A program made the translations under genes and the position numbers. Below the pieces are notes generated by a model. That model worked only from the letters and a program-made list of their open reading frames with translations, made no database searches and was not told where the DNA came from. 64,000 nt of DNA from Membranipora membranacea (Eukaryota > Bryozoa > Gymnolaemata > Cheilostomatida > Membraniporidae), in the NCBI GenBank assembly GCA_914767715.1, contig OU612067.1, positions 372,001-436,000 on the forward strand, written 5' to 3'. Each line of letters begins with the position of its first letter. The stretch's first letter is position 1. Of this stretch, positions 14,443-64,000 are shown piece by piece.

Positions 14443-14705
14443 ATAATCTATACTGTACATAATCTATACTGTACATAATCTATACTGTACATAATCTATA
14501 CTGTACATAATCTATATTGTACATAATCTATACTGTGTACATAATCTATACTGTACATAATCTATACTGTACATAATCTATACTGTACATAATCTATACT
14601 GTACATAATCTATACTGTACATAATCTATACTGTACATAATCTATACTGTACATAATCTATACTGTACATAATCTATAATGTACATAATCTATACTGTAC
14701 ATAAT
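14443..14705. repeat. 16-bp minisatellite, about 16 copies
   Basis: The unit ATAATCTATACTGTAC is repeated head to tail with very few changes: one TATATTG variant, one TATAATG variant and one copy with two extra bases. It lies far from any exon I can identify. Confidence 0.95.
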
Positions 14706-28091: not shown

Positions 28092-31000
28092 TTACTGCAT
28101 ATATTCAGTAAAATCAGTAACATGTGAGGTCGCGGCGGGGTCGCTGCCCGAGGAGGGACGGGCGCTGCTGATCTTATCCTTCATACGTTTTATCTGTCTC
28201 AGTCTCTCCAGCCAGTTTGAAGCAAAGTACACGTTATTCTTCATTCTCTCACAGATCAACGACGCCATCTATAATGAGAGTCAAAACATATAATACAAGG
28301 ATTAACCAGTCCAGGTATTCCTTAGTAGTTTGTCCATATAGAGATAGTAATTTAGTACAATAGTCAGACGTCAGCGCTGTCGTCTCAGAAACACAAATAT
28401 TAACTCGTCCACCTTGGCACATGATATGAGGTGACATACACACACAATGTCCAGCGGGCAGTTCATAACATAAACAATGTGAGATATTGATATCAGATAT
28501 TAGGATGTGAACAATGAACTACCTAGAGGTAATTCATTGATGTGAAGAAGAGCTACAACTGCTGTCACCGGGACAGGTCCGTGGAGACAACTCCTCGGAC
28601 ATATAACTGAATTTAATATAAAAGTTTAGTTCTGGTCTAGTTATGATCAAGTTAGTGTTACATGTCACATAATCAGTATGTGGGTTTGTTTCTGCAAGCA
28701 TTATGTCAATCAACGTCTTAGCATAGCTTATATACATGAAAAGTTTGATGTATGTCCACGAGAAAAATTTTCAGCAAAGCAACACGATCACCAGATCTTG
28801 ATGCAGAATTAAATTCTGAGATTTCTCTTGTTTTAGTCCTTGTATCTCAGGCCATCTCTTTCCATGTAATGCTTATTGGATTAGCACTGACGCCTCATAG
28901 ATTGTCTACTTCGCTGATAGTCGAGATGTATGGTTGGGATTTGTGAATAAGAAGTATGACTAATAGTTATGATGTGTAGTTCTGACTAAGAGTTACGACT
29001 TAGAATCATGACTTACAGAACTATGCAGAGCTATCTGTTTAACTAGACTGGTCACATGTTCATCACTTATAACTCTGGTGGATACAGGCTCCAGTATCTG
29101 TTTTATCTCTGCAGAAAGAAATATAAATCTTTTATTAGGATACAGCGAAGGTATACGACTCTGTTACACTGGAAGGACGTGTGACAAAGCTTGAAGGCGT
29201 ACACATAATTATCGTTTAGAAACATGGTGTCTAAGTTCAGCGACTAAGCTAACATTTCCAGTGAACTTGGGTTAAAATATTAGCAATTTTTAGGTTTCAA
29301 ATTTTTTCACATAAGTCATCATTGAGAATTTATCCGAAACCAAACAAACAGCAGAATAAATATTGAGCAATTTTTTCGATTAGTGCAACTTCAAAATTTA
29401 ATATCCAATAGGAATAATATGTAGTGTGGAGATAGTTCTATTAATTGAGAATACCAACCAAAATGGCTGAACACAATCTAATTACAACGAAATCCATCTT
29501 CGATGGTATATGTCAAGCCTATATAAAACTAACATGACAACTCATTAAAACACCCTGAAAGTGCTAGTTTATGTACTCTGAAGCCTTGGTCGCTGGTAGT
29601 GGCATCCCATTATCAACCAACTTTCAACTGATCTAAAGTTGGTTAGGTGTCCTAGCTACATAATATGTACAGTACCCAGTATGGCTTTTTATGTAACATC
29701 AGTGTGCCTCTGCAGGTGATGGGCGGGCGATGTTATATATAACTAACTTACCATCCTTACATAGTACAGACACTGCATTAGATACCTGATCCAGCGGTTC
29801 TATCACTATATTCACATAATTAAAAGCTCCCTGTAATCAGACAGCACATCATCATACATCTATGTGTACACAGTCATAGTTACAGACATTATATATAGGA
29901 TATGTGTACATACAGTCATAGTTACATCATCATACAGATATGTGTACATACAGTCATAGTTACAGACATTATATATAGGATATATGTACATACAGTCATA
30001 GTTACAGACATTATATATAGGATATCTTCTATAGCAATAATTAAGAGATATGATGGATAGAACTTCTTGTGTAGCCTTGTCCCACAATCTGTTTTGTTTT
30101 GAAAACAAAAATAGTGGCTGTGTGACAAGCCTACAAGCCCTTACGTATAAGGTTTATATATGTACAGTACACTGAGAGCTAACCAACACAACAGTAATTG
30201 GTCTGGCCTTGTCAGCAGGATGCAGACTGTGCTGTCTCAGCTAAGTTCTGGTCAAAACACATACAATGTTATATTATATAATGTGGGCAAACATTTAGAT
30301 TATTAAAATGCTGACACACATAAATGGGAGTAAAAAGAAATAGGTACCAGTGTAACAGTACGTATATTATATGATACCTTGATTGTACCCATATTATATT
30401 TCTCTCCGCTGTCGTTATACACTATAGTAACATAATCATTACCAATATGCCTCTTCTTATCATTGCATTTAGGATCCTTCTCTTTAGTCGGCATCATCGT
30501 GGCTATGTGAAACACCACTGTCAAAGAAACAGCAATAGCAACAATAATAACAGCAGTGCTTATGTTTAAAAGGTAATGCTTGTTTCCCATTGCGGTGATA
30601 TCTTGCGCTATCAGATTTGTTGTGTTGCATTTACGTTATGGTCTCATATCCATTTAGACAGGCTGGACCTACCAAGTGATTGACTTTGCACCACAGTGGC
30701 AGTTTTCAACACAGTGAAGATTTCAATACTGTGTCTCCTCAGAATGTCAGAATGGGAGGATGAAGATGACTCAGTGGGTAGACCAGGCCTTAGTGCACAA
30801 GAGATGAAGGTCAAAACTGAGAGCAGAATCGGTGCAGATATTACAGCCTCTTCACCTCACCACTTTTTCAATTATTTCTTTTATGCGAAAATCCCGAGTG
30901 ACACGACACCTTGATATTACCCAAATTATTAACCATAATCAGAATCTTTGCCAGATCCAGACCATAAACAGCTCAAGAGAGGGCAAAAACTGAAAATTCT

Positions 31001-34000
31001 TCTCTGCCATGAAGACGTCATTTATGGTTTAATATACACTAAATTATTATCATTAACGGAATAGAATTCTAGTATGGTCACCATCTTTTCTAATAATAAA
31101 ACTTTCAATCATCCAATAATTTATACAGCCAATGTAACCAATGAACTCCGGGCAGAGGGATTTCATTCATGTAACCCACACAAGCAGCCAGCATTTGATT
31201 TAATGAGACCAGCAACAATTAATTAATCCTCTCCTAATCCTGTCAAAAGTAACTCAAAACCATTATATTCACACATTAATTCTCAGCCAAACTACAGGAT
31301 TAGTGATCAGGGAACTCCTGTCGATGTAAACACTGATGTCAACAAGGATCAGAGCATCTACCTGAGATGCGATGTCACAAGCCCACCCACTGAGTCACCT
31401 GTCATAACTAGCTATCATTGCTGTCACATGTCAGCACTGTGTGTGTTCTGAGGTATATAAAGCCTCGATGGCTTCCAGCACAACTCATAACCAATCTTGT
31501 ATTCATACAGTAAACACACCAATAATCAGATATAACTCATAGACATGGATATCTTAGAAGCTGACATAGTAGATCAGTTAGAGTTATACGAGGAGTCTGT
31601 GGAGAGCGCCCCACTGCCTGATGACTTAGTGGAGAGATTTAATCTCAATGTTATAGTGGATATGACTGATGAGACTCTCTTAGTGTTAGACAGAGCTATC
31701 GGACAATACAACATCATCAAACACAGACTGAGATCTATAGAAGTGAGGCTGATGAGAGCTATGAAGTCGGGACGGTACGGCTGTGCCGCAGGACTGGAGA
31801 TGCAGAGGGACTCTACTAGAGGAGCTCTTTGTATGTATAATGAGTACATACACAGGAAGATTGCTAAGATTAACGGACTGCAGGCTTATAGGGCTATGCA
31901 CTGCAGGCGATAAAGTCACAGAGACATGAGGTGTTAGTGAAGGAGAAACAAATCAGTCCTTCTCAGGACTAACACAATTAATCAGAGAGATTGTTCAGAG
32001 CTCCCTGCACTGTGGTTTCAGGAGTGAAACCTAATTACCACATAATACCCTGATAATTGACAATGTGGGCGTTATTGTTACAGATTTTTTGACAATGGGT
32101 ATTAGAATATGACTTAATGGCCAAGTGATTGAGCTTGAACAATCACCGGAAATAAATCTTAAATTGCTCCCTTGGTAGAGTTTCACCGTTTCTGTTTACA
32201 TCCCAGCCCCTGTTTCCATGTGGACTTTGAGCTTGAGCCAATTAAAACTCAGGTTCGCACTAGAAAATGGTGTACATTCCCATGAACAGCAAGCTCAAAT
32301 TTCAAAAGAGACCGCTGCAGTTGGGAATTGTACTCAGGTCTCCGCATACATGTTCTTAGACAGCAGAGAGGGCGAGCTGAATGGTGTTTCAATGGTTTGA
32401 ACAACCAATCAGCTCACCCTAAAGAAAAACAACCAAATGTAAAAAAACAGTATTCATGAAACTTAGTGTCTTTTGATGCCTGTATATAAATGAGAACTTA
32501 CTCTGTATGACCTCATCGTGCCAGATGTAGGTATATTTACCGTCCTGTCCCTCCTCGTGATCTAGTCCTCCGATATGCATATCTCTGGGGTCACAGTTAT
32601 TTAGTGATAGTAATGTACCGAGACTCCTTAAGAAATGTGAGTATCTGCGAGATCCGTATGTGTTAGATAGGATAGATAACTCATCGCTAGCCTGTCCTTT
32701 ACCTACATATACTATCCCTACCTGTAATAATCAGAATATATACTATCCCTACCTGTAATAATCAGAATATATACTATCCCTACCTGTAATAATCAGAATA
32801 TATACTATCCCTACCTGTAATAATCAGAATATATACTATCCCTACCTGTAATAATCAGAATATAAACTATCCCTACCTGTAATAATCAGAATATATAATA
32901 TCCCTACCTGTAATAATCAGAATATATACTATCCCTACCTGTAATAATCAGAATATATACTATCCCTACCTGTAATAATCAGAATATATACTATCCCTAC
33001 CTGTAATAATCAGAATATAAACTACCCCTACCTGTAATAATCAGAATATATACTATCCCTACCTGTAATAATCAGAATATATACTATCCCTACCTGTAAT
33101 AATCAGAATATAAACTACCCCTACCTGTAATAATCAGAATATATACTATCCCTACCTGTAATAATCAGAATATATACTATCCCTACCTGTAATAATCAGA
33201 ATATATACTATCCCTACCTGTAATAATCAGAATATAAACTATCCCTACCTGTAATAATCAGAATATATACTATCCCTACCTGTAATAATCAGAATATATA
33301 CTATCCCTACCTGTAATAATCAGAATATAAACTACCCCTACCTGTAATAATCAGAATATATACTATCCCTACCTGTAATAATCAGAATATAAACTACCCC
33401 TACCTGTAATAATCAGAATATATACTATCCCTACCTGTAATAATCAGAATATATACTATCCCTACCTGTAATAATCAGAATATATACTATCCCTACCTGT
33501 AATAATCAGAATATAAACTATCCCTACCTGTAATAATCAGAATATAAACTACCCCTACCTGTAATAATCAGAATATATACTATCCCTACCTGTAATAATC
33601 AGAATATATACTATCCCTACCTGTAATAATCAGAATATAAACTATCCCTACCTGTAATAATCAGAATATATACTATCCCTACCTGTAATAATCAGAATAT
33701 ATACTATCCCTACCTGTAATAATCAGAATATAAACTACCCCTACCTGTAATAATCAGAATATATACTATCCCTACCTGTAATAATCAGAATATAAACTAC
33801 CCCTACCGGTAATAATCAGAATATATACTATCCCTACCTGTAATAATCAGAATATATACTATCCCTACCTGTAATAATCAGAATATAAACTATCCCTACC
33901 TGTAATAATCAGAATATAAACTACCCCTACCTGTAATAATCAGAATATATACTATCCCTACCTGTAATAATCAGAATATATACTATCCCTACCTGTAATA

Positions 34001-37000
34001 ATCAGAATATAAACTATCCCTACCTGTAATAATCAGAATATAAACTACCCCTACCTGTAATAATCAGAATATATACTATCCCTACCTGTAATAATCAGAA
34101 TATATACTATCCCTACCTGTAATAATCAGAATATATACTACCCCTACCTGTAATAATCAGAATATAAACTACCCCTACCTGTAATAATCAGAATATATAC
34201 TATCCCTACCTGTAATAATCAGAATATATACTATCCCTACCTGTAATAATCAGAATATATACTACCCCTACCTGTAATAATCAGAATATATACTATCCCT
34301 ACCTGTAATAATCAGAATATATACTATCCCTACCTGTAATAATCAGAATATAAACTATCCCTACCTGTAATAATCAGAATATAAACTACCCCTACCTGTA
34401 ATAATCAGAATATATACTATCCCTACCTGTAATAATCAGAATATATACTATCCCTACCTGTAATAATCAGAATATAAACTATCCCTACCTGTAATAATCA
34501 GAATATATACTATCCCTACCTGTAATAATCAGAATATATACTATCCCTACCTGTAATAATCAGAATATATACTATCCCTACCTGTAATAATCAGAATATA
34601 TACTACCCCTACCTGTAATAATCAGAATATAAACTACCCCTACCTGTAATAATCAGAATATATACTATCCCTACCTGTAATAATCAGAATATATACTATC
34701 CCTACCTGTAATAATCAGAATATATACTATCCCTACCTGTAATAATCAGAATATATACCACCCCTACCTGTAATAATCAGAATATAAACTACCCCTACCT
34801 GTAATAATCAGAATATATACTATCCCTACCTGTAATAATCAGAATATATACTATCCCTACCTGTAATAATCAGAATATATACTACCCCTACCTGTAATAA
34901 TCAGAATATATACTATCCCTACCTGTAATAATCAGAATATATACTATCCCTACCTGTAATAATCAGAATATAAACTATCCCTACCTGTAATAATCAGAAT
35001 ATAAACTACCCCTACCTGTAATAATCAGAATATATACTATCCCTACCTGTAATAATCAGAATATATACTATCCCTACCTGTAATAATCAGAATATAAACT
35101 ATCCCTACCTGTAATAATCAGAATATATACTATCCCTACCTGTAATAATCAGAATATATACTATCCCTACCTGTAATAATCAGAATATATACTATCCCTA
35201 CCTGTAATAATCAGAATATATAATATCCCTACCTGTAATAATCAGAATATATACTATCCCTACCTGTAATAATCAGAATATATACTATCCCTACCTGTAA
35301 TAATCAGAATATAAACTATCCCTACCTGTAATAATCAGAATATATACTATCCCTACCTGTAATAATCAGAATATATACTATCCCTACCTGTAATAATCAG
35401 AATATATACTATCCCTACCTGTAATAATCAGAATATATAATATCCCTACCTGTAATAATCAGAATATATACTATCCCTACCTGTAATAATCAGAATATAT
35501 ACTATCCCTACCTGTAATAATCAGAATATATACTATCCCTACCTGTAATAATCAGAATATATACTATCCCTACCTGTAATAATCAGAATATATACTATCC
35601 CTACCTGTAATAATCAGAATATATACTATCCCTACCTGTAATAATCAGAATATATACTATCCCTACCTGTAATAAACAGAATATATACTATCCCTACCTG
35701 TAATAATCAGAATATAAACTATCCCTACCTGTAATAATCAGAATATATAATATCCCTACCTGTAATAATCAGAATATATACTATCCCTACCTGTAATAAT
35801 CAGAATATATACTATCCCTACCTGTAATAATCAGAATATATACTATCCCTACCTGTAATAATCAGAATATAAACTACCCCTACCTGTAATAATCAGAATA
35901 TATACTATCCCTACCTGTAATAATCAGAATATATACTATCCCTACCTGTAAAAATCAGAATATAAACTACCCCTACCTGTAATAATCAGAATATAAACTA
36001 CCCCTACCTGTAATAATCAGAATATATACTATCCCTACCTGTAATAATCAGAATATATACTATCCCTACCTGTAATAATCAGAATATAAACTATCCCTAC
36101 CTGTAATAATCAGAATATATACTATCCCTACCTGTAATAATCAGAATATATACTATCCCTACCTGTAATAATCAGAATATATACTATCCCTACCTGTAAT
36201 AATCAGAATATATACTACCCCTACCTGTAATAATCAGAATATAAACTACCCCTACCTGTAATAATCAGAATATATACTATCCCTACCTGTAATAATCAGA
36301 ATATATACTATCCCTACCTGTAATAATCAGAATATATACTATCCCTACCTGTAATAATCAGAATATATACTACCCCTACCTGTAATAATCAGAATATAAA
36401 CTACCCCTACCTGTAATAATCAGAATATATACTATCCCTACCTGTAATAATCAGAATATATACTATCCCTACCTGTAATAATCAGAATATATACTACCCC
36501 TACCTGTAATAATCAGAATATATACTATCCCTACCTGTAATAATCAGAATATATACTATCCCTACCTGTAATAATCAGAATATATACTATCCCTACCTGT
36601 AATAATCAGAATATATAATATCCCTACCTGTAATAATCAGAATATATACTATCCCTACCTGTAATAATCAGAATATATACTATCCCTACCTGTAATAATC
36701 AGAATATATAATATCCCTACCTGTAATAATCAGAATATATACTATCCCTACCTGTAATAATCAGAATATATACTATCCCTACCTGTAATAATCAGAATAT
36801 ATACTATCCCTACCTGTAATAATCAGAATATATACTATCCCTACCTGTAATAATCAGAATATATACTATCCCTACCTGTAATAATCAGAATATATACTAT
36901 CCCTACCTGTAATAATCAGAATATATACTATCCCTACCTGTAATAAACAGAATATATACTATCCCTACCTGTAATAATCAGAATATAAACTATCCCTACC

Positions 37001-40000
37001 TGTAATAATCAGAATATATAATATCCCTACCTGTAATAATCAGAATATATACTATCCCTACCTGTAATAATCAGAATATATACTATCCCTACCTGTAATA
37101 ATCAGAATATATACTATCCCTACCTGTAATAATCAGAATATAAACTACCCCTACCTGTAATAATCAGAATATATACTATCCCTACCTGTAATAATCAGAA
37201 TATATACTATCCCTACCTGTAAAAATCAGAATATAAACTACCCCTACCTGTAATAATCAGAATATATACTATCCCTACCTGTAATAATCAGAATATATAC
37301 TATCCCTACCTGTAATAATCAGAATATATACTATCCCTACCTGTAATAATCAGAATATAAACTATCCCTACCTGTAATAATCAGAATATAAACTATCCCT
37401 ACCTGTAATAATCAGAATATAAACTACCCCTACCTGTAATAATCAGAATATATACTATCCCTACCTGTAATAATCAGAATATATACTATCCCTACCTGTA
37501 ATAATCAGAATATAAACTATCCCTACCTGTAATAATCAGAATATAAACTATCCCTACCTGTAATAATCAGAATATAAACTACCCCTACCTGTAATAATCA
37601 GAATATATACTATCCCTACCTGTAATAATCAGAATATATACTATCCCTACCTGTAATAATCAGAATATATACTACCCCTACCTGTAATAATCAGAATATA
37701 TACTATCCCTACCTGTAATAATCAGAATATAAACTATCCCTACCTGTAATAATCAGAATATAAACTACCCCTACCTGTAATAATCAGAATATATACTATC
37801 CCTACCTGTAATAATCAGAATATATACTATCCCTACCTGTAATAATCAGAATATATACTATCCCTACCTGTAATAATCAGAATATATACTATCCCTACCT
37901 GTAATAATCAGAATATATACTATCCCTACCTGTAATAATCAGAATATATACTATCCCTACCTGTAATAATCAGAATATATAATATCCCTACCTGTAATAA
38001 TCAGAATATATACTATCCCTACCTGTAATAATCAGAATATATACTATCCCTACCTGTAATAATCAGAATATATACTATCCCTACCTGTAATAATCAGAAT
38101 ATATAATATCCCTACCTGTAATAATCAGAATATATACTATCCCTACCTGTAATAATCAGAATATATACTATCCCTACCTGTAATAATCAGAATATATACT
38201 ATCCCTACCTGTAATAATCAGAATATATACTATCCCTACCTGTAATAATCAGAATATAAACTATCCCTACCTGTAATAATCAGAATATATACTATCCCTA
38301 CCTGTAATAATCAGAATATATACTATCCCTACCTGTAATAATCAGAATATAAACTATCCCTACCTGTAATAATCAGAATATATACTATCCCTACCTGTAA
38401 TAATCAGAATATATACTATCCCTACCTGTAATAATCAGAATATATACTATCCCTACCTGTAATAATCAGAACATATAATATCCCTACCTGTAATAATCAG
38501 AATAAATACTATCCCTACCTGTAATAATCAGAATATATACTATCCCTACCTGTAATAATCAGAATATATACTATCCCTACCTGTAATAATCAGAATATAT
38601 AATATCCCTACCTGTAATAATCAGAATATATACTATCCCTACCTGTAATAATCAGAATATATACTATCCCTACCTGTAATAATCAGAATATATACTATCC
38701 CTACCTGTAATAATCAGAATATATACTATCCCTACCTGTAATAATCAGAATATAAACTATCCCTACCTGTAATAATCAGAATATATACTATCCCTACCTG
38801 TAATAATCAGAATATATACTATCCCTACCTGTAATAATCAGAATATATACTATCCCTACCTGTAATAATCAGAATATATAATATCCCTACCTGTAATAAT
38901 CAGAATATATACTATCCCTACCTGTAATAATCAGAATATATACTATCCCTACCTGTAATAATCAGAATATATACTATCCCTACCTGTAATAATCAGAATA
39001 TATACTATCCCTACCTGTAATAATCAGAATATATAATATCCCTACCTGTAATAATCAGAATATATACTATCCCTACCTGTAATAATCAGAATATATACTA
39101 TCCCTACCTGTAATAATCAGAATATATAATATCCCTACCTGTAATAATCAGAATATATACTATCCCTACCTGTAATAATCAGAATATATAATATCCCTAC
39201 CTGTAATAATCAGAATATATACTATCCCTACCTGTAATAATCAGAATATATACTATCCCTACCTGTAATAATCAGAATATATACTATCCCTACCTGTAAT
39301 AATCAGAATATATAATATCCCTACCTGTAATAATCAGAATATATACTATCCCTACCTGTAATAATCAGAATATATACTATCCCTACCTGTAATAATCAGA
39401 ATATATACTATCCCTACCTGTAATAATCAGAATATATACTATCCCTACCTGTAATAATCAGAATATAAACTATCCCTACCTGTAATAATCAGAATATATA
39501 CTATCCCTACCTGTAATAATCAGAATATAAACTATCCCTACCTGTAATAATCAGAATATATACTATCCCTACCTGTAATAATCAGAATATATACTATCCC
39601 TACCTGTAATAATCAGAATATATACTATCCCTACCTGTAATAATCAGAATATATAATATCCCTACCTGTAATAATCAGAATATATACTATCCCTACCTGT
39701 AATAATCAGAATATATACTATCCCTACCTGTAATAATCAGAATATATACTATCCCTACCTGTAATAATCAGAATATATAATATCCCTACCTGTAATAATC
39801 AGAATATATACTATCCCTACCTGTAATAATCAGAATATATACTATCCCTACCTGTAATAATCAGAATATATACTATCCCTACCTGTAATAATCAGAATAT
39901 ATACTATCCCTACCTGTAATAATCAGAATATAAACTATCCCTACCTGTAATAATCAGAATATATACTATCCCTACCTGTAATAATCAGAATATATACTAT

Positions 40001-43000
40001 CCCTACCTGTAATAATCAGAATATATACTATCCCTACCTGTAATAATCAGAATATATAATATCCCTACCTGTAATAATCAGAATATATACTATCCCTACC
40101 TGTAATAATCAGAATATATACTATCCCTACCTGTAATAATCAGAATATATACTATCCCTACCTGTAATAATCAGAATATATACTATCCCTACCTGTAATA
40201 ATCAGAATATATAATATCCCTACCTGTAATAATCAGAATATATACTATCCCTACCTGTAATAATCAGAATATATACTATCCCTACCTGTAATAATCAGAA
40301 TATATAATATCCCTACCTGTAATAATAAAAATACTCCATCATAGCACAGCTTTACAGACAGCATGTACAGGAATTAAAGTCAAACCTTGTGGAGCTCATA
40401 TAATTCCAATCAATTCCCACAAAATCCCAAGTTTACAGAACTTTATAATAGACCTATAACCCCACTATTAGACTATGAGTACGATTATTGTACCTTGTGT
40501 GTCTCATACGGAGCTATCCTCTCTAGGTTCTTTAAACCTCGAACAAATTCCTACAAATAGAAGATAAAGACCTAATCAGTATATGTGTAATATGTACTTA
40601 GGTAAGATCTCTAGTTCTTCCTATACACATGTTCTATCTGTCGTCTTTTAATCATTGGGACAATAATCTAAGGATTCGGGAGGACAACTTCAAAGAAACA
40701 ACAAGGATATTTGAAATTTAGTAATCATTTCCTGTGTTTAATCATTGTACGCTTTCCCGTTGTGAGTATAAACCAGCAGGTCGACCCTTGGCGCTGCGAA
40801 GTGATCACACCAATTGTGCCCCCTGTACTGACCTCTGTACCGTCGGGTATAGGTAGAGGTAAGTTACTGGTATGGAGTAAGTTCATATGATAGAGCTGTA
40901 AGAATACAAAGCTGGGTAGTATCCCTGTCCTCATATCCTTAGTGGTGTGAGTATTAAGTCTACGTGAGCTCATAGGGAGACGGTCAGGGGACGCCGATGT
41001 ACTCGAGTAAGAGAATGTCTGACTCCGAGGCTTCATCATAGGTACTATGTCTGTAAAGAGACAGCAGTGAGTCAGGCTACTATTACAGGCAGAATATATC
41101 ATAATATACTACATACCTTAATCCAACATGTGACAGAGATTAGGTTTCTTTTCTTGCTGGGTTTAGTTTGACCAAGGAGTTAGTTGTCTCTAACTCGTTG
41201 GTTTGATGCCCACAACTAACAGTAAAGATTGATTTTATGCAGATCTTACACAATATCTTGGACAAATTTTGAGTAATGAGCTCACAAGCTAGAATATTTA
41301 TAATTGCCTGTATGCAGGAGAGTACAGCGCGCTATAACCATGCTGTCAGACACTCAGACCGCCCTCCAAGTCGCACCAGTACCTTATACCACATGCAGCA
41401 GTCCTCACCCATTTAGTAAAGCAAATTATAAGACCTATATACTGAATGTTACTAGATTAAAACTCTACCGCCCTGTTGAGCCCATCTACTCGCATACCAG
41501 AGAAGTTATAAGCTTGCAGGCGAAACCTACACCTTCTACGTAATAATAGATTAATTGGATAATGCAGAATAAAGTAATAAGAAGCGTAACATCCGGAGCA
41601 TGATGAGATTTTACCCGGCGGAGTCTCAGCGTCCATATCATCTATATACTGATCATGAGCTTCCATTAGCTCGTGTTCTCTAATGATATACTCGTGTATC
41701 ATACCGGAGAATGATACAGAGCCCGATACAGAACCGTGATGTAGCTGTGTACCTGTGTGTCGTAAGTTATATATAGTAATATATTTGTAGCACCAACTCA
41801 AAGACGTATGGCTCCTAGGGCTAAATGGGGAGAATAGAAAATATCTGGAAAATTCCCAAACCACTAAATTTTTCTCATACCAAAGTGTGATGTAGATAGA
41901 TAAGAGTGTGATTGGAGATAAAAATACCTGTTACTGTTTGATATTTTACATCAGACATCTTACCATCATTAGCCTCAGTATTCTCAAGGTCAGTCAGCGA
42001 AGTTTGTCGAGTGAATGCACTGCCACTCCCTCCTATACTGAGGCTCTGTTTGCGAGGAATTGGGCTAATAGTGTCACTGACTACACTGGAGCCTGGTACT
42101 GCAGTGTTAGACTGAGAGCTGCTGAGAGCGGGTCTCTGGAATGGGGAGGTGCTACGTCGTGTACCCGGTTGTGGTGATAGTATATGTCTATGGTCTATAT
42201 CTGCTGGTGATCGTGTACGTATAATATCAGGGTTAGAATGATTACGTACTGGTGATGATATAGTTCTGTGTAGCGCTGTGTGATAATCTGTTATATGAGG
42301 CTCTGTCAGCTGACCCTCCTCATCTGTGTAACACAAAGAGGAGATACAGTCAGCTGAGATACAGTCAGCTGAGATACAGTCAGCTGAGATACAGTCAGCT
42401 GAGATACAGTCAGCTGAGATACAGTCAACAGAGAAATCAAAGAGTGATGAAATAGGTTCATCGCTTTTACAGATACCAGTTGTAATTCCCAACTCTGAGA
42501 AAAGTAAAACAGCTAGCAATGTGACATAAACTAGATAAGATCAGCAAATTTTGTCACATTGTTAAATATTTCGTGTGACTTTTATAGTAACACCGTAGTG
42601 TAAGACTACATTCATGTGAAGCTGATAGAACTTTGGAGGTCATTCATAAAAAAAGCTTTGGTTGGTTTAGAAAAAACGGTTTGTTTGATCAAATTAGGCC
42701 TGCAAGGAGATACACCTTGCATGATAACTTCATTATCTGCCCACAAGCAGGACAAGTTTTTTTCTCCAGCATTACTCAGACTTATTATAGTTCCCTCTGT
42801 ACTGACCTGTACACTGTAGATTGAGGCTGATCTTCCTCCTGGCCGTACTGCTCAGAGCGATATCATGGAAGTATTTATCGTGTTGTTCTACATATTCTTT
42901 CTCCTCTAGTGATCCGCTCTCTATCATCCTATCTACCTGCGGTATGACACTCAGGCTATCTCGAGATGTGAATGGAGACTTGTGTGGTGATGCCATAAAC

Positions 43001-46000
43001 AACGAGCTGCAAGAGAAAATGTGCAACAATAAAACATCTACAGTCTCATAGCGGGTCCCCGAAAGGCAATGGCTGATAAATGAGATGTGAAAATATAAGT
43101 TTGGGTCTCAACCATATGTCAACATATCCGACAACCTGCCTTGGAGCTAGCTAGAAGAGCAATGAAAAAGGCAGGGTACTGCAGCCCCTCTCTATCATCA
43201 CAGTCTCCATAGTTAGATCACAGTCTCAAGGTGGGTAGCAGCAATGGGAGATGGTGCTGACTGAGACATGACGGTAATCCCCCTCTATCACAGTCTTATA
43301 GTGGGTAGCAGTGGGACATGGTACTGACGAGATGTGTAAGTAATTACCTGATATCGGAGAGAGGAAACTCCTCATAGTTAAATAGTTGTCTGTTTTGTAT
43401 TCTCAGTATCCACGATGTATCACCTGAGGGTCTGTGTATATATATCTCAGCCCAGCCATTACACCAACAGTTACACTCTCCTAATGTAAACTTATTACCA
43501 CTCGCCAGAGCTACAATTATACTAAACTTATAACCACTTGCGATAGATACTAGTAGATAATACTTGATGTAAGAATTGATATATAAATGCTAATAAAAAT
43601 GCAACTATCATTTTTAGTTTCTTTTAAGAGAGCCCAACATTTACTTATATTATGATGATAACTATGTTTCAGAGTGGATATAAAAAAGACGTGAGTATTG
43701 TGCTACAAGAAAGTCGGAAGAAGTTGGAAGTGATCATCTACAAGACAGTGATACGCCCCCTGTTGTTGTATGGAGATTAAACATGGCCACTGACAGATTA
43801 TCCTGCTGAAAGATTCAGTGTATGTGAGATGAAAATTTTGTGATACTGCCTTTAACTAAGTGTTGAGGAGCAAAAACAACCAACAAAAGCATAAGGCAAG
43901 ATGCGAATGTCATGAGTGTGTTAGACCTGATGAGGAGAAGAAGAAGGTTGCAGTGGTTTGGACATGTGTGCAGAAGAGAGTGAGAGAGACTATGACATCA
44001 GAAGAATACATGAGATGTGAGTCGAGGGAAGTAGAAATCAGGAACGCTCAAAGCATAGATGGAAGGACACAATCAGGTTCCCTCGGTGAATAGGGAGCTC
44101 AGCGCAGGATTAGATGGAGAAGTCTTATAGAGCTAGACGTCCGTCAGGCACCCGCTTCCCGTAGAGGATAGAGATGAGATAGGTGAGGATAGGTGAGTAT
44201 AAAAAGGTCATGGTATCTATGTCAACAAGTATCAAAACTCCTTTCCGAGGGAATAGCCCAAAACTGACAGAGGTTCACAGCACATAACACAGAGAAGTTA
44301 TGATGTTCATATCAGATCACATCTGGTTCTACTCACCAGTAAATAAATCCTCCCCCGCCGTATCGCCGTTATTACTGTTATTACTCTCTGCACTCTCAGA
44401 TATAGTATTAATTCTCCCGGCGTTGTGTATCATATCATCCTGTGTGAACGGAGTATCATCTCGAGTTACTGACGACGCATTCGCCACCGCTGACTTGTGT
44501 CTCTTCCTACCTCCTTTCTCTGAAGACTACAATATTAAAAAAAGATCAAGTCAAGGCAGCGATAGCATACGGAGCATGTTAAGTGGTAGGGCTAGCCTGG
44601 GCAAGGGCTCTGGGCCTACCCCATCCCCACCTTACCCAAACAGCCTGCTCAGGATATGTTAGGCCCAGGCTATGTTAGGGTAATTCACATATTGCTCACA
44701 GATGTTATTTTATTGTCTACAAGGTGATAACTTCACTCATGCACATAGTAAGACTCTACTTTTGATCCTATGAATAAGAGTTGTCCCGTCAACATACATC
44801 ACTGTAAAAGAGTAGACAATTTAAAAAGCTATCACAATCAGCATGATAAATGTTTATATCATAACGCTACATCAAACCGATGGTTGTAACTGACCTCTGG
44901 TTGATTGAAGAGGGTGGGTACAGGTTCACCCCTTACTGAAGCTGTACATCTCTGACAGAGCCCGGTCTTAGTAACTTTAGATGTCCCTCCACTAGTGGTG
45001 ATTGTTATTAGCTTATTACCCACAAACCAGGACTGACTTCTGCCTCCTTCTAGGAGGAATGTGGTCACTGGGGTTCTGTAGCAGATATATGTACATGTAT
45101 ACATATTATAGGTTATAGTTTAAGTCTGTATCACATGGTATAATATCAGGTTATAGTTTGATAGCAAAGTTAACTTATGTTGATAGATGATTTCTGATTT
45201 GTGTGTAACACATGTACTCTATATTTTCCTGAAGTTACGCGGTGATTTTTACATGATTGAATGCTAAGCATACTGATCTCAGTGTCTCAATCATTATAAA
45301 GTGTGCAGACCAAGTGTTTTGATGTACTGAGTATTGTGAGCATATTCAGGCGACATCTCAGATTACTGACCTTTTAGGAACAGAAGCACAATTAGAGAAA
45401 GTGAATCGTGACATCACGTCAAAACATGTCTCCTGTAACTCCTGATGTATAGCCATTATCTTATCAGCCTCAGAGTCTTCTCTTTGTAAGTGCTCAGGGT
45501 GCCCTCCTACGCCCCCAACTGTAGTACGCTTGTGTGTCTGTAAACCCTACAAAACAGATAATATAAAGTAAAAACCTGGGACTGGCCCCGAGGGGTTTGA
45601 ACCGCATAGTGATTGGAACGAAAATTTTGGTTGTATTGATTTCACATGTGGGATTCTCTTCAATGATTTGCAGGGGACAAGAGATCTGCGTGCTCAAAAT
45701 AGATGATCTAATGATTTGATGCAAGTAGTGACATGGTGATAATTTAGCTAAGTGTCTACTATTGTACAAAGGCCAGTGATAGGTCATCAATGCTGAACAT
45801 GTTTTGTGGTTGTACTATTTGCATTAAAATAACTGAGCTTCAATGACAGTAAAAGATCAGTTAATCAAGTCTGGCGGCAAGATGATGCTGCCACAACTTC
45901 AGAAACTTGTACACTAGTTACTCAGTCATCAACTTATACCTTCACACATATACTTATACCTTCACACATCTACTTATACCTTCACACATCTACTTATACC

Positions 46001-49000
46001 TTCACACATATACTTATACCTTCACACATATACTTTCACACATAGATACTCACCTTGATGATGAAGGGCACGAGCTGTTTCCTGTACATGAGGCGACATT
46101 TCACAAACCACATGATGACTACGTGGTAAGCGAGATAAACAGCAAAGTGCTGAAACTGAGATGGGTCTGTGTAAGGTAGAGCTATCACAAATATAAACTT
46201 GTACTGAGCTTCATTGAAGTTACGATACAGCTTAGGTAGACGCACCAGACCTACAATAATATCAGATTACTTATTTGTTTGATGAGAAATGTCTGATTTT
46301 CGTTAAAAATATCATCCTAGCAATATGAGCATCCGACTAAAAAAGGCAATGTGAAAATGTTAAGGTAGAACAATTATCGATCATAATTGTGCTGGCTTAG
46401 ATTGTCACTTGCGTAATGTGGTGAAGTCCAATCGTGCAGGTTGGTGCCATGAAAGAAAAGCCAGATCAGTTTTTGTGATCACTTTTACTTCATTTTCTTA
46501 TATCAGGCAACTGTACACTTGTCAGGTATCTTCAGTTGTAATATAAAATTATATACGACTGTTTTTTGCTTCTAAAATATTGCTCTTAGAAAATTTTTTT
46601 TATTATAGTTCTGTAGATCTTGTAGTTATTGTAGATCTTGTAATTTGGCGATCGGATCATTTTGATGTCACGTCGCATAACATCAATACACAAATGCTTG
46701 TGACTTTTCCTAGAGAAAAACATTTAACAAGGTCACAACAACGGATATCTAGGTACAGAGTTGACATGTATATCAGAGTTGAGCCAGAGGAGAGTCGACA
46801 GAGAGGAGATACAAGACTCACATGATAGAAACATGAGCAGAGGTAGAGCCATATCCTTATTAGCTCTTATCCTCGAGAGTGTATCTAATATACGAGGTAA
46901 CATCTTCATCATAATACTCTCCATCTCCATACAGCAAACTCTGAGAGTATGTACACACAGGCGGGCACAGTTAGTCAGTAATCCAAACTCTAAACACTTG
47001 ATCAAATCTGACTACAAAATATCGTAACAAATAGTGAACATTACAAGTGGAGTGTTTTGAAATTTTTGCCCCAAGGCTTTGTTTTTGCTCTTTGATTAGA
47101 GTGACCCTCACAAAAATGGTCAGGCAAGAAAATTGTTTTTCAGAAGAGATAACTTTTCAGCCATCAGTTGTATCGTGATCAGTGAGCTATAGTCACCCAG
47201 GCCTGTGAACGGTGGTCGCAAGAGAAGAAAGGGGGGCAGCCAACCTTCTCACCCTTTGCCTTAAGGAGATTCGGTAGTCCTACTTAGTTTAGCTACATGT
47301 AGACTGTTATGACTTACTTTAGCTACATGTAGACTGTTATGACTTACTTTAGCTACATGTAGACTGTTATGACTTACTTTAGCTACATGTAGACTGTTAT
47401 GATAGGCGCTCATACAGGTAAGTACAGGGATTATCTGCTCATGGAAGTCTGGTCTGGCAAATCTCTTATTAGGAGCTGCTGGTGTATTTATAAGATGTCG
47501 CAAGGTTTTCTCCTTCAACTGGAAACGAAAAAGACATTTTACTACAGCAGTCTAGTAGAAGAAATTAACATGACATCTCATTGAAAATAATATTTACTCA
47601 TTGATTTATTAAACGACATTCTCTTGTTGAGAGATGATTATAAACATGGGAACAACTCGGATTCATTTGAATGCCTTAAATGGAATGTGGTTCAACGAAT
47701 TTGGATGACACTGTGTAGGAGCTTGAACGTTCATTACTTGAGTCACAGCGATGCGATGTCATTGATAAAATAAGCTGAAAGTAAATAACAGTAACTCAGC
47801 ATTACTCCCGGTGCCAGTGAAGCAATCAAATTGACTCTGCTAATCGATTTTGGTGAGGTTAAAAAGATCTACGTCCCTATATCTTAAACTTGCAGCTTAT
47901 TTTAACTAAGATGATTGGCTGAGGGTAACTCTATAGATAGACCAATGAGCGAGCTGCAGTGCTGTATATACATGTTTATTCTGCCCTACAGCTGTACAGA
48001 TTAAGCTGTAGATGATAATCTCACCATATTACAGAGTGTCTGACACACGGTATCTACTGTAGGAGTAGCTGTAGATAATATTAATCTCTTATTCTGCCAC
48101 TGTGCAGGCATCTTACTAAGCACCATACCAAGCACACACCAGTCGGCCTCCTACAACAAACGGGGTACATGTATATGTGTAGTAGAGTTGCAAATGGTGC
48201 GATCCAATTCACTCTTCATTCTTTCTCAACATATTCATCGTCCAATAATTATTGGTCAATAATTAGCTAAACCTCCCATCAGGAAGTTAGAAGTAGACGA
48301 ATGTAATTTATTTAGCAGAAGAATTTTTTTGGTTCCGACACACTTTGTCTTCATTGACCGCCCAATTTAAATTACGGGTCCTGATAAAATACTACGATGA
48401 TATAAACTTCAGCATCAAAATACTGTATTAGCCCAATACAGTCATACATAGTAGGTAGATATAACTGTGAGAATTAGCACGAACCTCTCTGAGACACGTG
48501 TTTATGAGATTCAGTAAAACATCAAAATCCAGAATCTTCAGTTCTCTGAATGATGGATTGTCTTCACTTGTGTGTCCGTATCCTTCTGGTATATAGCTGT
48601 AAGCGTGAGAGAATATATCCAGAATAATGCAGTGCATGCCAAATATATTTCACAGCTTTGGCAGCTTAAAAGACTGGAAATTGAATCAGTTTCAAAATAA
48701 TTTGCTGATGACTTTAGGTCAATTTGGTGTGTTTATCTTTTGTTTGGTTTGGCCGTGACAATAGTACTCAATAAAAGCATTTTTTCCTGATTTAATTATA
48801 ATATCTTAGAATCTTCAGCCCACGGGCTGTCAGCAAAGCGTGAGATGTTGCGAAAGGCAGAGGTGCTCATAAGCATGAGCTTTCACCATTTTCCCGCTCC
48901 CCAGCTCACCAAGCTGACCTTAAATCAATATCTGTATATCCAAACAACCACCTACCTATCAGAGATGTATATATAGGGGCTGTAACCTCCACACCCCTCC

Positions 49001-52000
49001 AGTCCGACCTTACCACTCCAGTCCACTCTGATATCCAGTAACATGGTAAATACTAGAGATCTTATGTGACTAGCGGTGGGAGACGACTTATACTTAGTAT
49101 AGTGTGACGTTATGTGTGACGTGATGATCTCCAGAGGTAATATAGCCTGAGAACCTCTCAACTCATACAGCTTAGACTGCGAATATTACATAAGTAGGTA
49201 AAATATATGTTATTTACTATCTCCAAACATGCAAATTTTAATGATGAAGAAAGAGAATGATTGGAGGAGGATGTGATTTTTTCAATAAAGCCTGGCCATT
49301 TTATCTGTAAATGTGTGCCCACCAGCGCCTGTTTAATTTGAATAACCTATTATAACTACCAGATGGTGAAATCAATGTGAGCTATGTCTAGGGAACACTG
49401 ACACGCCCACAATCAAGTGTACCCCTTGTCATTTGTAAGATGGGATTGGTGGCTATTGCCATCAATGCGGGAGGCTATTCAAGTCCTTGGTTGAAGCAAG
49501 TGTCTGAAACAATAGCTGGGGTGTTTATTCCTACTTTTGTGACTGCTGAGTCAGAGATATAAGTCTCACCTTGAACAAGTCTATAAGCCCAGCTACAGCG
49601 TCTCTTATATCAGCACATTGAGCCTCAGTTTCAGAGTTACGTCCGGTAGATGTGAGGTTAGGCTTCATCTCTCGCTCCAAGATCTATGTAATGTTAAGTA
49701 CATATATGAACAAGCCTTAGTGATAGGGTGGATCGGGGCATTCACTTGCTATGAATCAGCTGATATTCAGTGAAGGTTAATATATATCATGGATAACACC
49801 ACGGTAAGATCATAGTATGAGCATACATCTGTTCATGAAATACTCTCGTTGATTTTAACATAAGTCCCTGACCTTTTGAATAAGACCGATGATTTCGACA
49901 CTTTTTCTTGGCGTGCAGGTCTTGGATTGTTCGACTAACATTTTGACAGCGTAGCAGCGCACTGTAACATCAGGATCTGTGTAGACTGCGGAGAATGTTG
50001 ATAACATCAACTCTAGCAGCTCTTCCTACAATAAAGTTGTCCATATTATTAATTGTAGCAGGGAGGGTGGGATCCCACCCTCCCTGATTGTAGGTTTATT
50101 CACTTTTAGGAAGGAGTTGTGCCCTCCCTGAGCAACTAGTTCAAAGAGAGCACAACTCTCATTTAAAACTAATCTTCACCCATTTTAACCTACTCACATA
50201 CAATAAGCACATCAAAGTAGGTTAAGAAGAGGTGTGTTTTGTTCGAGACCAATCAAATTTATATTACCCCTGATGACATTGAGGGATGTAGCTATCTACC
50301 TTAGTCTGAGAACATAGTAATGTATTATATTTTTGTATTATTGTATTGTATTATTTAGCTACAAACCTCATGAAGTATTTTATTGGTGCTTATTATTTGC
50401 TCGAGTACGTTGAGAGCCTTGAGTCTGATGGCACTGCGAGTCTCTGTTTTATAATACTTAGTCAGTAGATGATCGAGATTATATAACCAGTCATCATTAT
50501 TAGGTTTACATGACTCCGCTCTGTGCTCTAATAACATAGTCACTGAACTCTCCTATAAACATAAGAATAAATCAAAAGATGAGCAACAGAAAATAACTTA
50601 ATTAACAATATATTATTACAAATACTTGAGGTTATATTTAACTATAAGTGTAAATCTTGAGCGGTTCTCAACATTAATCCACTCATCACAGAGCAAATCA
50701 CATGAGCACTATGTTATCAAAGCATATGTACCTATTTTGATCATTCACACTCGCTTAGAGTTCATATTCTGTGACAAAGTTTATATGAGATTGGAGTTTG
50801 ATGACAGCTTGCCTAGAGTATTATGTGAGCTCACTGGTAAGGTGCGTTTATACTGCCATATAATTGGACATCCAATTAATAGGAAATAAAAATAATAAAT
50901 CTAATCAGAACTTAATTGATATTGTGACACATACTTTAAGCTGACTATGCTGTGTAATCTTACCGGTCGGCTGGCAGCACACATCTCTATAAACCTGAAC
51001 AGTCTATGAGGTGAGCTGCTGTATGTACAGTTATCCTGTAGGTCCTCCATAGCTGTTAGTATGTCGTGTAGATTATTACTTATCTTATTAATATATACAC
51101 TGTCTCCAACAGAACCCGTCTATAGATATATACACACTGAGTGAGGGTCATAAACATAGAAGATATCCCGTAGTTCTATATCAGTATTGAGCGTTTAGCA
51201 CCAAATATTCTTAAAAAAAAAGACTTGAGCTGCCCAAACTTGTCATAGATTCTGCCTAACTGTGCCGTGACAGAGCACTAGAAGAGCACTGGTAGAGCCG
51301 TGACAGGGCACTAGTAGAGTGCTGACAGAGCACTGACGGAGCACTGACAGAGCACTGACAGAGCGCTGACAGAGCACTGACAGAGCACTGACAGAGCGCA
51401 GACAGAGCACTAACAGAGCACTGGCAGAACGGTGACAGAACGCTCACAGAGCACTGACAGATAAAGTGACAGAGCACTGACAGGACACTGACAGAGCTCT
51501 GACAGAGCACTGACAGTGAGGCTGACATACTATCTCCTACCTTGATGAGCTCATGTAAATTATCCAGTATATCCAGTACATTCTCCCAGAGAATAGAGGG
51601 CTGCATCTTACCAAACTTTCTGACCAGACGTAATACTGTAGTGGATACTTCAAACGCTACCTTAGAGTTATTACACTCCAACGCCTACAAACAGATACAC
51701 ATGTAAGAAAGTTATACCTGTATCTAAAAGCATCAATTATTGTAAAGAGGGCAGAGCTGCTCAACTTGTGGAACACTTTGGGTAAAGTCAAAACTAAATC
51801 ACATGATCAAATCGGCCAGTATTCCGCTTATAATTAATACCAGTGGGTGTAGAGATTTAATCTTTTGGTTACAGCGATATACATAGTAGTATATTTAGTC
51901 TATGTCTATATGGTGGTGTATGAAGTCTATGGTGACAGTACTCACAGTTTTAAATGAAGGCAGCACGGCCGTGGCCGACACCTGAAGAGTATCGACTCTC

Positions 52001-53657
52001 TGAGATCCCCACAGAGCCATACCGATAAAGAAAATAGCACCTCTCAGTAAGGAAGCATCCCTCAGGTTATCTCTGTACAAGTAGAGAGTAGTTAGAATTA
52101 CAAGAACTACCTCATGCTTTATGTGACATAAATGACGACAACGTAAAGACTGTTGCTCTATGTGTTTACTATTGACTCTCAATTTGAGGGAAAATCCTGA
52201 GTATTAGGTGATATTAATATGTCTGAGTGTTGAATGTGTATATCATGCCTCTTTATATACAGCAGTAGCTTGTTTCGGTAACTCCAAACTAGCTAATAAA
52301 AAACTCTGAGTTTTTCTCAAACCGTAACAGGATTCTACCCAACCAAAACTCTACACTAGTAGGTTTGGCTCAAAATAATTCACACTGAGTTCATTGGTAT
52401 GAGCTTACTTTATTTTCAAAATATTTGTGAGCGTGAATAGAGCACTATATCCGAGATGCGTTCCCATCAACTCCTTCATCAACTTCCAAGACCTGCAGAA
52501 CATGAGTATGTGGGATAATAGATTGTTTCATTTTGAAAGCATGAAGATTGAAATAGATTTACTCCTGCAGACACTAACAGTTCAGTAAATCCATGTCAAG
52601 TGACAACAGGGGCTGTGTAAAGAAATGGGGAATAAAAGTTGCAGACATATAAGATACCACGCAGAGCAGTGTTCAAATCATCTCATATGAAATATGTTTT
52701 TTGTCTCAGATGAAATCATGCCATACATACTGTGTTTGACCAATGAACTAAACCTAAGGGTTTAGGTTTAGTGACTAACTGAACTAAGGTTTAGTTCATT
52801 GGTTTGACAGGGGTTTTTGGCTAATGAAATGTGAACAAAAGATAAGGAATTCACATAACTCAAGATATGGTTTATGACAAACCTTTGTACGAATGTCTCA
52901 GTTAGCACAGTCCTACTGAGAGTCATACAGAACGGCAGCAGGGCTGCTGACTTTACATAATAATATTTTATAACGCTCTCTAGTACAGATAAACACCAAG
53001 TTATCTCCTCCTCACTTGTCGTCTTATTACAGATAGAACAACTCACTCTACAGCAGATAGAATACAACAACTCACTCTACAGCAGATAGAATACAACAAC
53101 TCACTCTACAACAGATAGGGTACAACAACTCACTCTACAGCAGATAGAGTACAACAACTCACTCTACAGCAGATAGAGTACAACAACTCACTCTACAGCA
53201 GATAGAATACAACAACTGACTCTACAGTAGATAAAATATAACAACTCACTCTACAGTATATAAGAATTCAATGGATCAACATGAGAAGTTAGCTCCCTTC
53301 CTCAGTGATATGCATTTTGATTCGGCCAACATGATTAATTAACTTACTTCAGCATGCCTGTCTGAATAATTTACTGAATTGCATGTTGTATATGAAGGGT
53401 AGTGAGAGGATATGGAATTCCTCTTGTTATACTACACTCACTTGAATAGTTCCATAGCCTTATCCTCGTCTATAAAAGCTGAGTTATATTTGATGACGTT
53501 AACTAGCAGCTCTAGGAAGTCTGTCTTCTTATCAGAGAGAGTATAATCATTGAGCCACTGCACCAGTAGAGCACCTATCTGCAACACAAAACAACATACT
53601 AAGCATCCAACACTGCTATTCTCAAATACACCATGTAAGATATATCTAATAAGTATG

Positions 53658-53690
<33 letters not shown>

Positions 53691-60200: not shown

Positions 60201-61014
60201 ATGTAAAGGTATCAAAAGTGTGCAATTTTGCACATTTTTTATACCTTTTGATCGATGATCTAGTTAGTTTTGTAACTCAGAACTTCAAATGATCACTCTG
60301 ACTCTGATATATATTTTGAATGTCCAATATAGTAATTTCCTCCAATACGATGCGTTTGGTAGTCGGGAGCATCTTTTCTTTTGCTATATTGACAGATTGG
60401 TGATTGTTGGTGATATTTTTTCAGGAGCTTTGAGTACCGGAACTGAATCAACCCAGCTTACATCATCTGGTACTGGGAGACTTCTAAATAGGAGAACTAC
60501 TGAATCTCATACTGAGACCTCAGGAGTTGCTAACTCATATACACAACAGAGAATAACTCCTAACCTTGTCAGAATGTCCAACCAGGAAACTGTGAACCCA
60601 TTCTCTATAACATACCCTCCAACTAATCCTCAACCTACAAATAATAGACACATACCTACCATATCACCTACTCAGACTATCCGCCAGAGCAGGCAGATGC
60701 CTACTGTCGTACCAAATACACCAGAAACAACAAGGGTGACAACTCCCATATTACCTCAAAGAGTGACAGGTGCCAGCACGACACTGACACCCTGTCCACC
60801 TCGTGACAGTACCTCTACTACTCCTGTGGCACCTCGGACAGGTGCTACCAATGCTGTATCTGGTAATCCATTCACTATAACCTGGCCTCCTGCTGGAGAT
60901 GGTGTGCAGAGTGGGGGGATAACTCACAGATCCACTAATAGCACAACGTCTCTAACTAGGAGAGTCAGTAGACAGGAGCTGAGGAGGTTAGGCAGGTCAG
61001 ATAGAGATACATAA
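57290..61014 (+). CDS. RING plus TRAF-type zinc-finger protein, probable E3 ubiquitin ligase, 8 exons
   Basis: Exons 57290-57429, 57698-57877, 58140-58247, 58595-58719, 59015-59194, 59568-59696, 59871-60077 and 60425-61014 join in phase to about 552 aa (577 if the later donor at 60152 is used). A RING finger at residues 44-85 has the ligands C44, C47, C57, H61, C64, C67, C82 and C85, with the usual W before the third Cys and CPVC at the end; exon 1/2 splicing creates C47. A second zinc site follows (KCTKCKWKG, then RAHSHG), as in RNF41- or TRAF-type ligases. Next comes a helical stretch (about residues 175-240), then a long Ser/Thr/Pro-rich tail with two NPF motifs. RING proteins transfer ubiquitin from an E2, so this is probably a cytoplasmic ligase. 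The substrate is unknown, and I could not match it to a named vertebrate gene. Confidence 0.85.
60023..60172 (+). repeat. 75-bp in-frame duplication covering a splice donor of the RING gene
   Basis: Two 75-bp copies each encode NTNPSQT(D/N)L(I/L)NTETAAQ and each end with a candidate donor: GGGAG|GTGAGT at 60078 and GGCAG|GTGTGT at 60153. Both donors are in the same phase, so the second would add 25 residues. The first matches the donor consensus better. Confidence 0.9.
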
Positions 61015-63825: not shown

Positions 63826-64000
63826 AGATCAAGCGGTAGTTGTTAGTGGAAAGAAAACTGAAAGAAAGAGAAGAGCGTATGAACCGTTATCACTTGATAT
63901 CATGGTGAAGAGTGTTCAGATGAATCTTGAGGCGATTTACCATTAGTCAGCTGAAGCAAAGCTCTAGAAGATCCTCAAAATCCGCCACCTGAACAAGATG
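63826..64000. other. Upstream of the coiled-coil gene, window edge
   Basis: 175 bp holding the 5' UTR or promoter of the minus-strand coiled-coil gene. No distinct motif seen. Confidence 0.4.

What the first reader, a model, noticed from the sequence alone, without database searches (positions are those of the whole stretch)
32707..40326. A splice acceptor amplified about 245-fold inside the TSC2 Rap-GAP region
The 31-bp unit is exactly 16 nt of intron end (ATTCTGATTATTACAG) plus 15 nt of exon start (GTAGGGATAGTATAT). The true exon boundary is fixed by phase and by gap-free alignment of [15 protein letters not shown] with human tuberin. The minisatellite therefore arose by duplication across the boundary, and the spliceosome must pick the last of about 246 near-identical acceptors. 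By my reading, choosing any earlier copy gives a premature stop within about 22 codons (31 nt shifts the frame, and later frames also close), which would remove the Rap-GAP domain. A tumour-suppressor-type gene carrying such a decoy array is striking.
Basis: partly seen in the sequence, partly recalled or inferred. Interest (0 to 1): 0.95.

Follow-up and report, generated by a model that had tools for sequence, protein, structure and literature searches.

The report
A 246-copy repeated splice acceptor
In the TSC2 gene of what is probably a bryozoan, a 31-letter piece straddling an intron's end and the next exon's start is repeated 246 times, so splicing must find the one copy that gives an intact protein; smaller arrays of this kind are known from amphioxus, but this one is extreme.

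Summary
A 31-bp x 246 array (32707-40333) makes up almost all of TSC2 intron 28 (40493-32722, 7,772 nt; 177 nt to the first copy). Each unit is 16 nt of intron end plus 15 nt of exon start; 245 of 246 keep AG|GTAGGG. Only the last copy leaves the modelled protein intact. The closest TSC2 proteins found are bryozoan (Bugula 74%, Watersipora 72%), so the host is probably a bryozoan. Splicing to an inner copy therefore rebuilds a donor that scores better than the native one and could be spliced forward. Two more arrays cross splice sites in this gene, but splice sites are not more often repeated than other positions of the gene, so boundary targeting is not shown. Boundary-spanning minisatellites are known as 'mirages' in amphioxus. 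This is a new variant: probably another phylum, far more copies than the cases I could read, with AG|GT in nearly every unit. Most likely exon definition selects the last copy, perhaps helped by recursive splicing. No RNA, raw reads, second individual or whole genome could be examined.

The parts
28101..55117 (-). TSC2 (tuberin) gene model: 33 exons, 1,638 codons, no internal stop; the model is not carried to a stop codon, and its intron 25 (75 nt) is doubtful
   Evidence: Spliced alignment to Watersipora subatra TSC2 (P0002); CDS check; the Bugula-based model lacks intron 25
40494..40550 (-). TSC2 exon 28, 57 nt, ends YETHK
40488..40493 (-). Native donor of intron 28, AAG|GTACAA; matrix score 3.0, lower than 29 of 30 other donors of the gene
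32722..40493 (-). Intron 28, 7,772 nt, phase 0; 177 nt from donor to first array junction
32707..40333 (-). 31-bp x 246 minisatellite; each unit = 16 nt intron end + 15 nt exon start with AG|GTAGGG
32707..32737 (-). Last unit, holding the acceptor that both bryozoan proteins support (32722|32721)
32502..32721 (-). TSC2 exon 29, 220 nt, start of the Rap-GAP domain ([10 protein letters not shown]...)
   Evidence: Pfam Rap_GAP E 2.1e-11; tuberin E 9.3e-21
32496..32501 (-). Downstream donor of exon 29, AGA|GTAAGT, the proposed exon-definition partner
53033..53271 (-). Second boundary-spanning array: 29 bp x 8.2 across the acceptor of intron 5 (53048|53047); the 7 upstream AG copies all give a stop
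47282..47402 (-). Third boundary-spanning array: 30 bp x 4 across the donor of intron 17 (47378|47377); two further intact GTAAGT donors, in frame
45932..46044 (-). 20-bp x 5 array 10 nt inside intron 19; its unit AAGGTATAAGTATATGTGTG resembles the donor AAG|GTGAGTATCTATGTGTG (by eye)
42341..42427 (-). 15-bp x 5.8 array 18 nt before the acceptor of intron 24; five CTCAG sites, all in frame

Best explanation
It is a 'mirage'-type minisatellite: a short tandem duplication across the 3' splice junction of TSC2 intron 28 that grew to 246 copies by duplication of units and blocks. The gene most likely stays functional because exon definition pairs the downstream donor (32501) with the acceptor nearest to it across exon 29, the last copy. 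Transcripts that first take an early copy need not be lost: each copy is AG|GT, so the product AAG|GTAGGG is itself a donor and can be spliced forward. Shown: array, boundary, frame consequences, AG|GT in 245 of 246 units, a repeated block inside the array, two further boundary-spanning arrays. Inferred: use of the last copy in RNA, exon definition, recursive rescue, nonsense-mediated decay of failures.
For: Array and register. Both bryozoan proteins place the acceptor at the last copy; 169 of 171 homologues are gap-free there. Earlier copies give stops. Array acceptors score 11.3, above 77% of 30 real ones; array donors 6.8, above 20% of 30; rebuilt donor 6.5 against native 3.0. Rare types f (copies 101, 142) and g (110, 151) recur at the same 41-unit distance inside an identical 20-unit block. 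Competing sites nearest across the exon are preferred when flanking introns are long (PMC9225289, abstract). Published mirages seem not to disturb splicing (PMC3087553 and PMC3902484, passages).
Against: No transcript seen. The first copy scores better (12.8) than the last (11.3), and its 177-nt distance fits intron definition, which by the same paper would favour it. Array donors lie in the lower fifth of the gene's donors. Recursion by random hops reaches the last copy in only 48-49% of runs at a 93-nt minimum intron and 29% at 186 nt, so it cannot be the whole answer. Splice junctions are not more often in tandem copies (3 of 64) than other positions of the gene (165 of 3858, 4.3%, giant array left out of the latter).
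Confidence: 0.6

Rival explanations
1. One-step removal: the whole 7.8-kb intron is spliced at once by exon definition; the inner copies are inert for want of exon context, and the array is a neutral passenger with no recursive use.
For: Mirages in amphioxus are reported not to disturb splicing; the exon-proximal rule for long introns (PMC9225289, abstract); array donors score below 80% of real donors.
Against: The inner acceptors are strong (11.3; in 14.4 kb of the gene only 12 of 966 AGs, real acceptors included, score as high) and are transcribed long before the last one.
Confidence: 0.45
2. Recursive ratchet: most transcripts splice first to an early copy and then move forward through AG|GT sites until no further copy is in reach.
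For: AG|GTAGGG in 245 of 246 units; rebuilt donor 6.5 against native 3.0; first copy 177 nt from the donor and third best of 246; published recursive consensus (Y)nNCAG|GTAAGT (PMC5126111, passages).
Against: GTAGGG matches GTAAGT at 4 of 6 positions; random hops end one or more copies short in about half to 70% of runs at realistic minimum introns; no RNA.
Confidence: 0.2
3. Leaky decoy: many transcripts use inner copies and are destroyed by nonsense-mediated decay, so array length tunes TSC2 output.
For: All earlier positions give stops, with four introns downstream of exon 29 in the model.
Against: No expression data; two other arrays of the gene (introns 17 and 24) give in-frame alternatives, not stops, so there is no common decoy design.
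Confidence: 0.15
4. Assembly inflation: a real but smaller array was over-extended in assembly.
For: 161 of 246 units are identical and a 20-unit block recurs exactly; the authors of PMC3087553 say that one amphioxus mirage was aberrantly assembled in the genome draft.
Against: Types are not evenly spread: c and e occur only from copies 83 and 86 on, and d is absent between copies 165 and 240; 7.6 kb is within ordinary long-read length (recalled).
Confidence: 0.1

Closest known systems
[quoted passage not shown] PMC3087553 and PMC3902484, passages
   Same: Short tandem units spanning a 5' or 3' splice junction, exon-proximal copy kept as the real one, many units with AG/GT signals, coding sequence otherwise intact.
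   Different: Probably another phylum (Bryozoa); 246 copies against 3-7 in the globin and PGBD5 cases I could read; 31-bp unit with AG|GT in 245 of 246. The original Adh paper is not held, so its largest copy number is unknown to me.
Tandem arrays of dual-specific splice sites (AGGT) in human UBC and VCX3A; PMC10809524, abstract and passages
   Same: Every repeat unit holds an AG|GT that could serve as acceptor or donor.
   Different: There the repeats are coding and introns are a multiple of the unit; here the array lies in the intron, the native donor is outside it, and every partial inclusion tested breaks the frame.
Recursive splicing at zero-length exons (Drosophila, human); PMC5126111, passages
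   Same: Acceptor immediately followed by a donor, so that splicing rebuilds a donor.
   Different: Known introns carry single or few sites; here up to 245 at 31-nt spacing, too close for neighbouring sites to pair; use not shown.
Intron gain by tandem duplication over AG/GT proto-splice sites (Rogers 1989 and others, as cited in PMC3087553)
   Same: Tandem duplication over AG|GT multiplies splice sites.
   Different: Here an existing intron seems to have been lengthened, not a new one made.

Membership tests
Mirage (boundary-spanning minisatellite) | Tandem unit spans an exon-intron junction | tested here: met
   16 nt intron + 15 nt exon in each unit; junction fixed by homologues
Mirage (boundary-spanning minisatellite) | Head-to-tail, near-identical copies with repeat turnover | tested here: met
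   97% match; 161 of 246 identical; 20-unit block repeated, against 500 shuffles mean 0.24 and maximum 19 units
Mirage (boundary-spanning minisatellite) | Normal splicing is kept | not testable with these tools
   No RNA; no protein of this species among the hits listed, apart from a window ORF
Mirage (boundary-spanning minisatellite) | Length polymorphism or somatic instability | not testable with these tools
   One assembly only
Dual-specific splice site array | AGGT at the unit junction | tested here: met
   245 of 246
Dual-specific splice site array | Intron length is a multiple of the unit (both ends in the repeat) | tested here: not met
   7,772 nt is not a multiple of 31; the native donor lies outside the array
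Dual-specific splice site array | Observed use as both 5' and 3' splice site | not testable with these tools
   No RNA
Recursive splice site | (Y)nNCAG|GTAAGT consensus | tested here: inconclusive
   ACAG|GTAGGG: AG|GT present, donor half 4 of 6; donor score 6.8, above 20% of 30 real donors
Recursive splice site | Saw-tooth nascent RNA or recursive junctions | not testable with these tools
   No RNA
TSC2 (tuberin) | Rap-GAP domain and full-length co-linear homology | tested here: met
   Pfam Rap_GAP, tuberin, alignment to residues 0-1631 of a 1,632-residue bryozoan TSC2

The most novel reading that the evidence does not exclude
The array is a self-correcting recursive splicing tract: up to 245 zero-length exons through which the transcript is ratcheted, every wrong acceptor choice rebuilding a better-scoring donor than the native one, with the only end states at or just before the right acceptor. 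TSC2 output would then depend on array length and on the last hops, a natural test of recursive splicing at extreme density.
Probability: 0.2. Interest if true: 0.88.

Novelty: new variant of a known kind. Interest (0 to 1): 0.6.

Why it matters
How a spliceosome chooses among near-identical acceptors, and whether wrong choices can be repaired by recursive splicing, can be asked directly here: a conserved gene carries 245 AG|GT sites with a frame read-out in which every wrong choice tested shows as an early stop. It probably extends boundary-spanning minisatellites, described for amphioxus, to another phylum, and suggests how one intron can grow from about 0.2 to 7.8 kb without moving its coding boundary.

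Tried and rejected
Uniqueness to this junction: rejected; two more arrays cross junctions in the same gene.

Targeting of splice sites by arrays: not shown. 3 of 64 junctions lie in tandem copies, against 165 of 3858 sampled positions (4.3%, giant array left out of the latter). Arrays that cross a junction: 3 of 7, expected 3.0 under uniform placement (p 0.65); with placement limited to at most 25 nt of exon, expected 0.96, p 0.057. All 7 lie across or within 25 nt of a junction (expected 3.8, p 0.013; limited placement 1.9, p 0.0004), but the cut-off of 26 nt in that test was chosen after seeing the data. The seven are TRF arrays of score 150 or more in the gene after merging (8 of 28 rows; 20 lower rows dropped, one of which served to extend an array end from 46035 to 46044); the giant array was shortened to 62 nt for the test.

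Selection on splice signals inside the array: 1 of 10 core positions varies against 10 of 21 others, one-sided p 0.046, window chosen post hoc; not relied on. Higher-order period: best lag 4 (0.525) is within shuffles (mean maximum 0.504, largest 0.56); only the block repeat at lag 41 stands.

75-bp duplication at 60022-60168 with GGTGAGT in the first copy as another donor array: rejected, the second copy runs to a stop codon soon after.

Mobile or microbial origin: no exact match of the unit in genome contigs or viral contigs (prokaryotic and viral collections, exact matches only). Rfam: 0 matches at gathering score. A transcript-derived protein of this species was sought (69 hits); the only identical one is a window ORF.
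Full report
WHAT IS THERE. TRF reports one array at 32707-40333, period 31, 246.0 copies, 97% match. On the minus strand, in the register of the exon, there are 246 units (40332-32707) with consensus ATTCTGATTATTACAG|GTAGGGATAGTATAT; 161 are identical and 12 types occur. 245 of 246 keep AG|GTAGGG; copy 211 reads CG|GTAGGG.

THE GENE. The exon at the array's end matches Pfam Rap_GAP (E 2.1e-11) and human tuberin (E 9.3e-21). For a hand-joined fragment around the Rap-GAP domain (241 residues scored), the best of 389 hits (120 listed) are TSC2 of the bryozoans Bugula neritina (74%) and Watersipora subatra (72%); the third is unnamed (56%), and the next named one is a scallop (54%) (lineage of Watersipora). 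The window is thus most likely from another bryozoan; the species was not identified. Spliced alignment to the Watersipora protein gives 33 exons, 55117-28101, 1,638 codons without an internal stop. The model is not carried to a stop codon, and its intron 25 (75 nt) is doubtful because the Bugula-based model lacks it. Intron 28 is 40493-32722, 7,772 nt, against a median of 379 nt for the 32 modelled introns. Both references place its acceptor at the last copy. Of 189 homologues fetched, 171 align across the junction and 169 do so without a gap within 18 columns; the two gaps lie eight residues downstream. Many are isoforms or close relatives, so they are not independent.

CONSEQUENCE OF EACH CHOICE. 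With the whole modelled CDS only copy 246 keeps the frame; copy 245 gives a stop after 17 codons and copies 1-244 after 21, around codon 1423-1427 of 1,638. Copy 211 is not a usable AG. Four introns follow exon 29, so nonsense-mediated decay would be expected (general knowledge). Keeping any number of units that are read through in the same way cannot rescue the frame: one or two shift it, three or more contain the stop (inference).

(a) Each unit is acceptor-like and donor-like at one point. A weight matrix from 30 other introns of the gene (introns 25 and 28 left out) scores array acceptors at 11.3 (median), above 77% of the real ones, and array donors at 6.8, above only 20% of the real ones. 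The native donor AAG|GTACAA scores 3.0, lower than 29 of 30; the donor rebuilt after a splice into the array, AAG|GTAGGG, scores 6.5. In 14.4 kb of the gene 12 of 966 AGs and 42 of 913 GTs, real sites included, reach the array scores. (b) The first copy scores 12.8, third best of 246 and above the last (11.3), so acceptor strength as scored here cannot be what picks the last copy. (c) The unit holds CTGAT, a branch-point-like YTNAY whose A is 10 nt before its own junction and 41 nt before the next (role inferred); 22 of 30 other introns have a YTNAY between -45 and -7. (d) A 20-unit block recurs 41 units further on; the rare types f (copies 101, 142) and g (110, 151) occur only there. The longest such block in 500 shuffles was 19 units, mean 0.24. 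This suggests growth by block duplication, or possibly an assembly duplication.

OTHER ARRAYS IN THE GENE. A scan for tandem copies of each junction finds 2 of 32 acceptors and 1 of 32 donors: intron 28, intron 5 (29 bp x 8; the 7 upstream AGs all give a stop) and the donor of intron 17 (30 bp x 4; two further intact donors, in frame). Random positions of the gene are just as often repeated (165 of 3858). Arrays at the donor of intron 19 and the acceptor of intron 24 start 10 and 18 nt from the junction; the latter offers five in-frame AGs. All 7 sizeable arrays lie across or within 25 nt of a junction, suggestive only (post hoc cut-off), while the number that cross one (3) is what uniform placement gives. 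In the three crossing arrays the exon-proximal copy is the one used in the homology-based model.

HOW IT MOST LIKELY WORKS. A published rule for competing sites is that the closest pair across the exon is preferred when flanking introns are large, and the closest pair across the intron when they are short (PMC9225289, abstract only). This array lies in both regimes: 177 nt to the first copy, 7,772 nt to the last. I think that exon definition from the donor at 32501 selects the last copy, and that transcripts which splice early to an inner copy may move on because the site is AG|GT. In a neutral simulation of random forward hops the transcript reaches the last copy in about 6 splices when any step is allowed (always, by construction), in 63% of runs at a 62-nt minimum intron, 48-49% at 93 nt and 29% at 186 nt, close to the shortest credible intron of the gene, 189 nt.

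WHAT IS KNOWN. [quoted passage not shown] PMC3902484, passages). The original Adh paper is not held. AGGT dual-specific sites in tandem arrays are known from human UBC and VCX3A (PMC10809524, abstract and passages), recursive sites from flies and humans (PMC5126111, passages). My searches listed no bryozoan case and none with a comparable copy number (open-licence papers only; listings read, not every paper).

LIMITS. No RNA, raw reads or second haplotype, and no whole-genome count: the genome search did not complete in eight tries. The copy number could be partly an assembly product.

Noticed in passing
window 31536-31913, + strand: A 125-codon ORF with an internal ATG ([18 protein letters not shown]...) lies antisense in TSC2 intron 29; no Pfam family at E 0.001 was reported for it beyond the four families listed for 116 ORFs.
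   Followed up: partly
window about 21650-26730, + strand: A TMEM161-like gene (Pfam Tmemb_161AB in 5 of 10 ORFs scanned) lies 3' of TSC2, convergent with it.
   Followed up: partly
window 1-27500 and 55300-64000: Two ORFs match Homeodomain in the scan of 116 ORFs (which ones was not printed). The ORF at 31-501 (+) has FSIDSLMS, which looks like an eh1 motif (recalled).
   Followed up: no
window 53033-53271, - strand: In the intron 5 array the acceptor TAG is followed by A and then GTGAGT, a donor-like motif one base downstream, so splicing through it would leave single extra bases.
   Followed up: partly
window 42341-42427, - strand: The 15-bp array before the acceptor of intron 24 (CTGACTGTATCTCAG) has a branch-point-like CTGAC and an AG in each unit; five alternative acceptors would add in-frame DCISA repeats.
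   Followed up: partly
window 60022-60168, + strand: A 75-bp x 2 duplication inside an ORF adds an in-frame copy of about 25 residues close to a stop codon.
   Followed up: partly
window 14443-14706 and 3437-3586: Further minisatellites outside TSC2 (16 bp x 16.4; 34 bp x 4.4); no gene model was made there, so their relation to splice sites is unknown.
   Followed up: no
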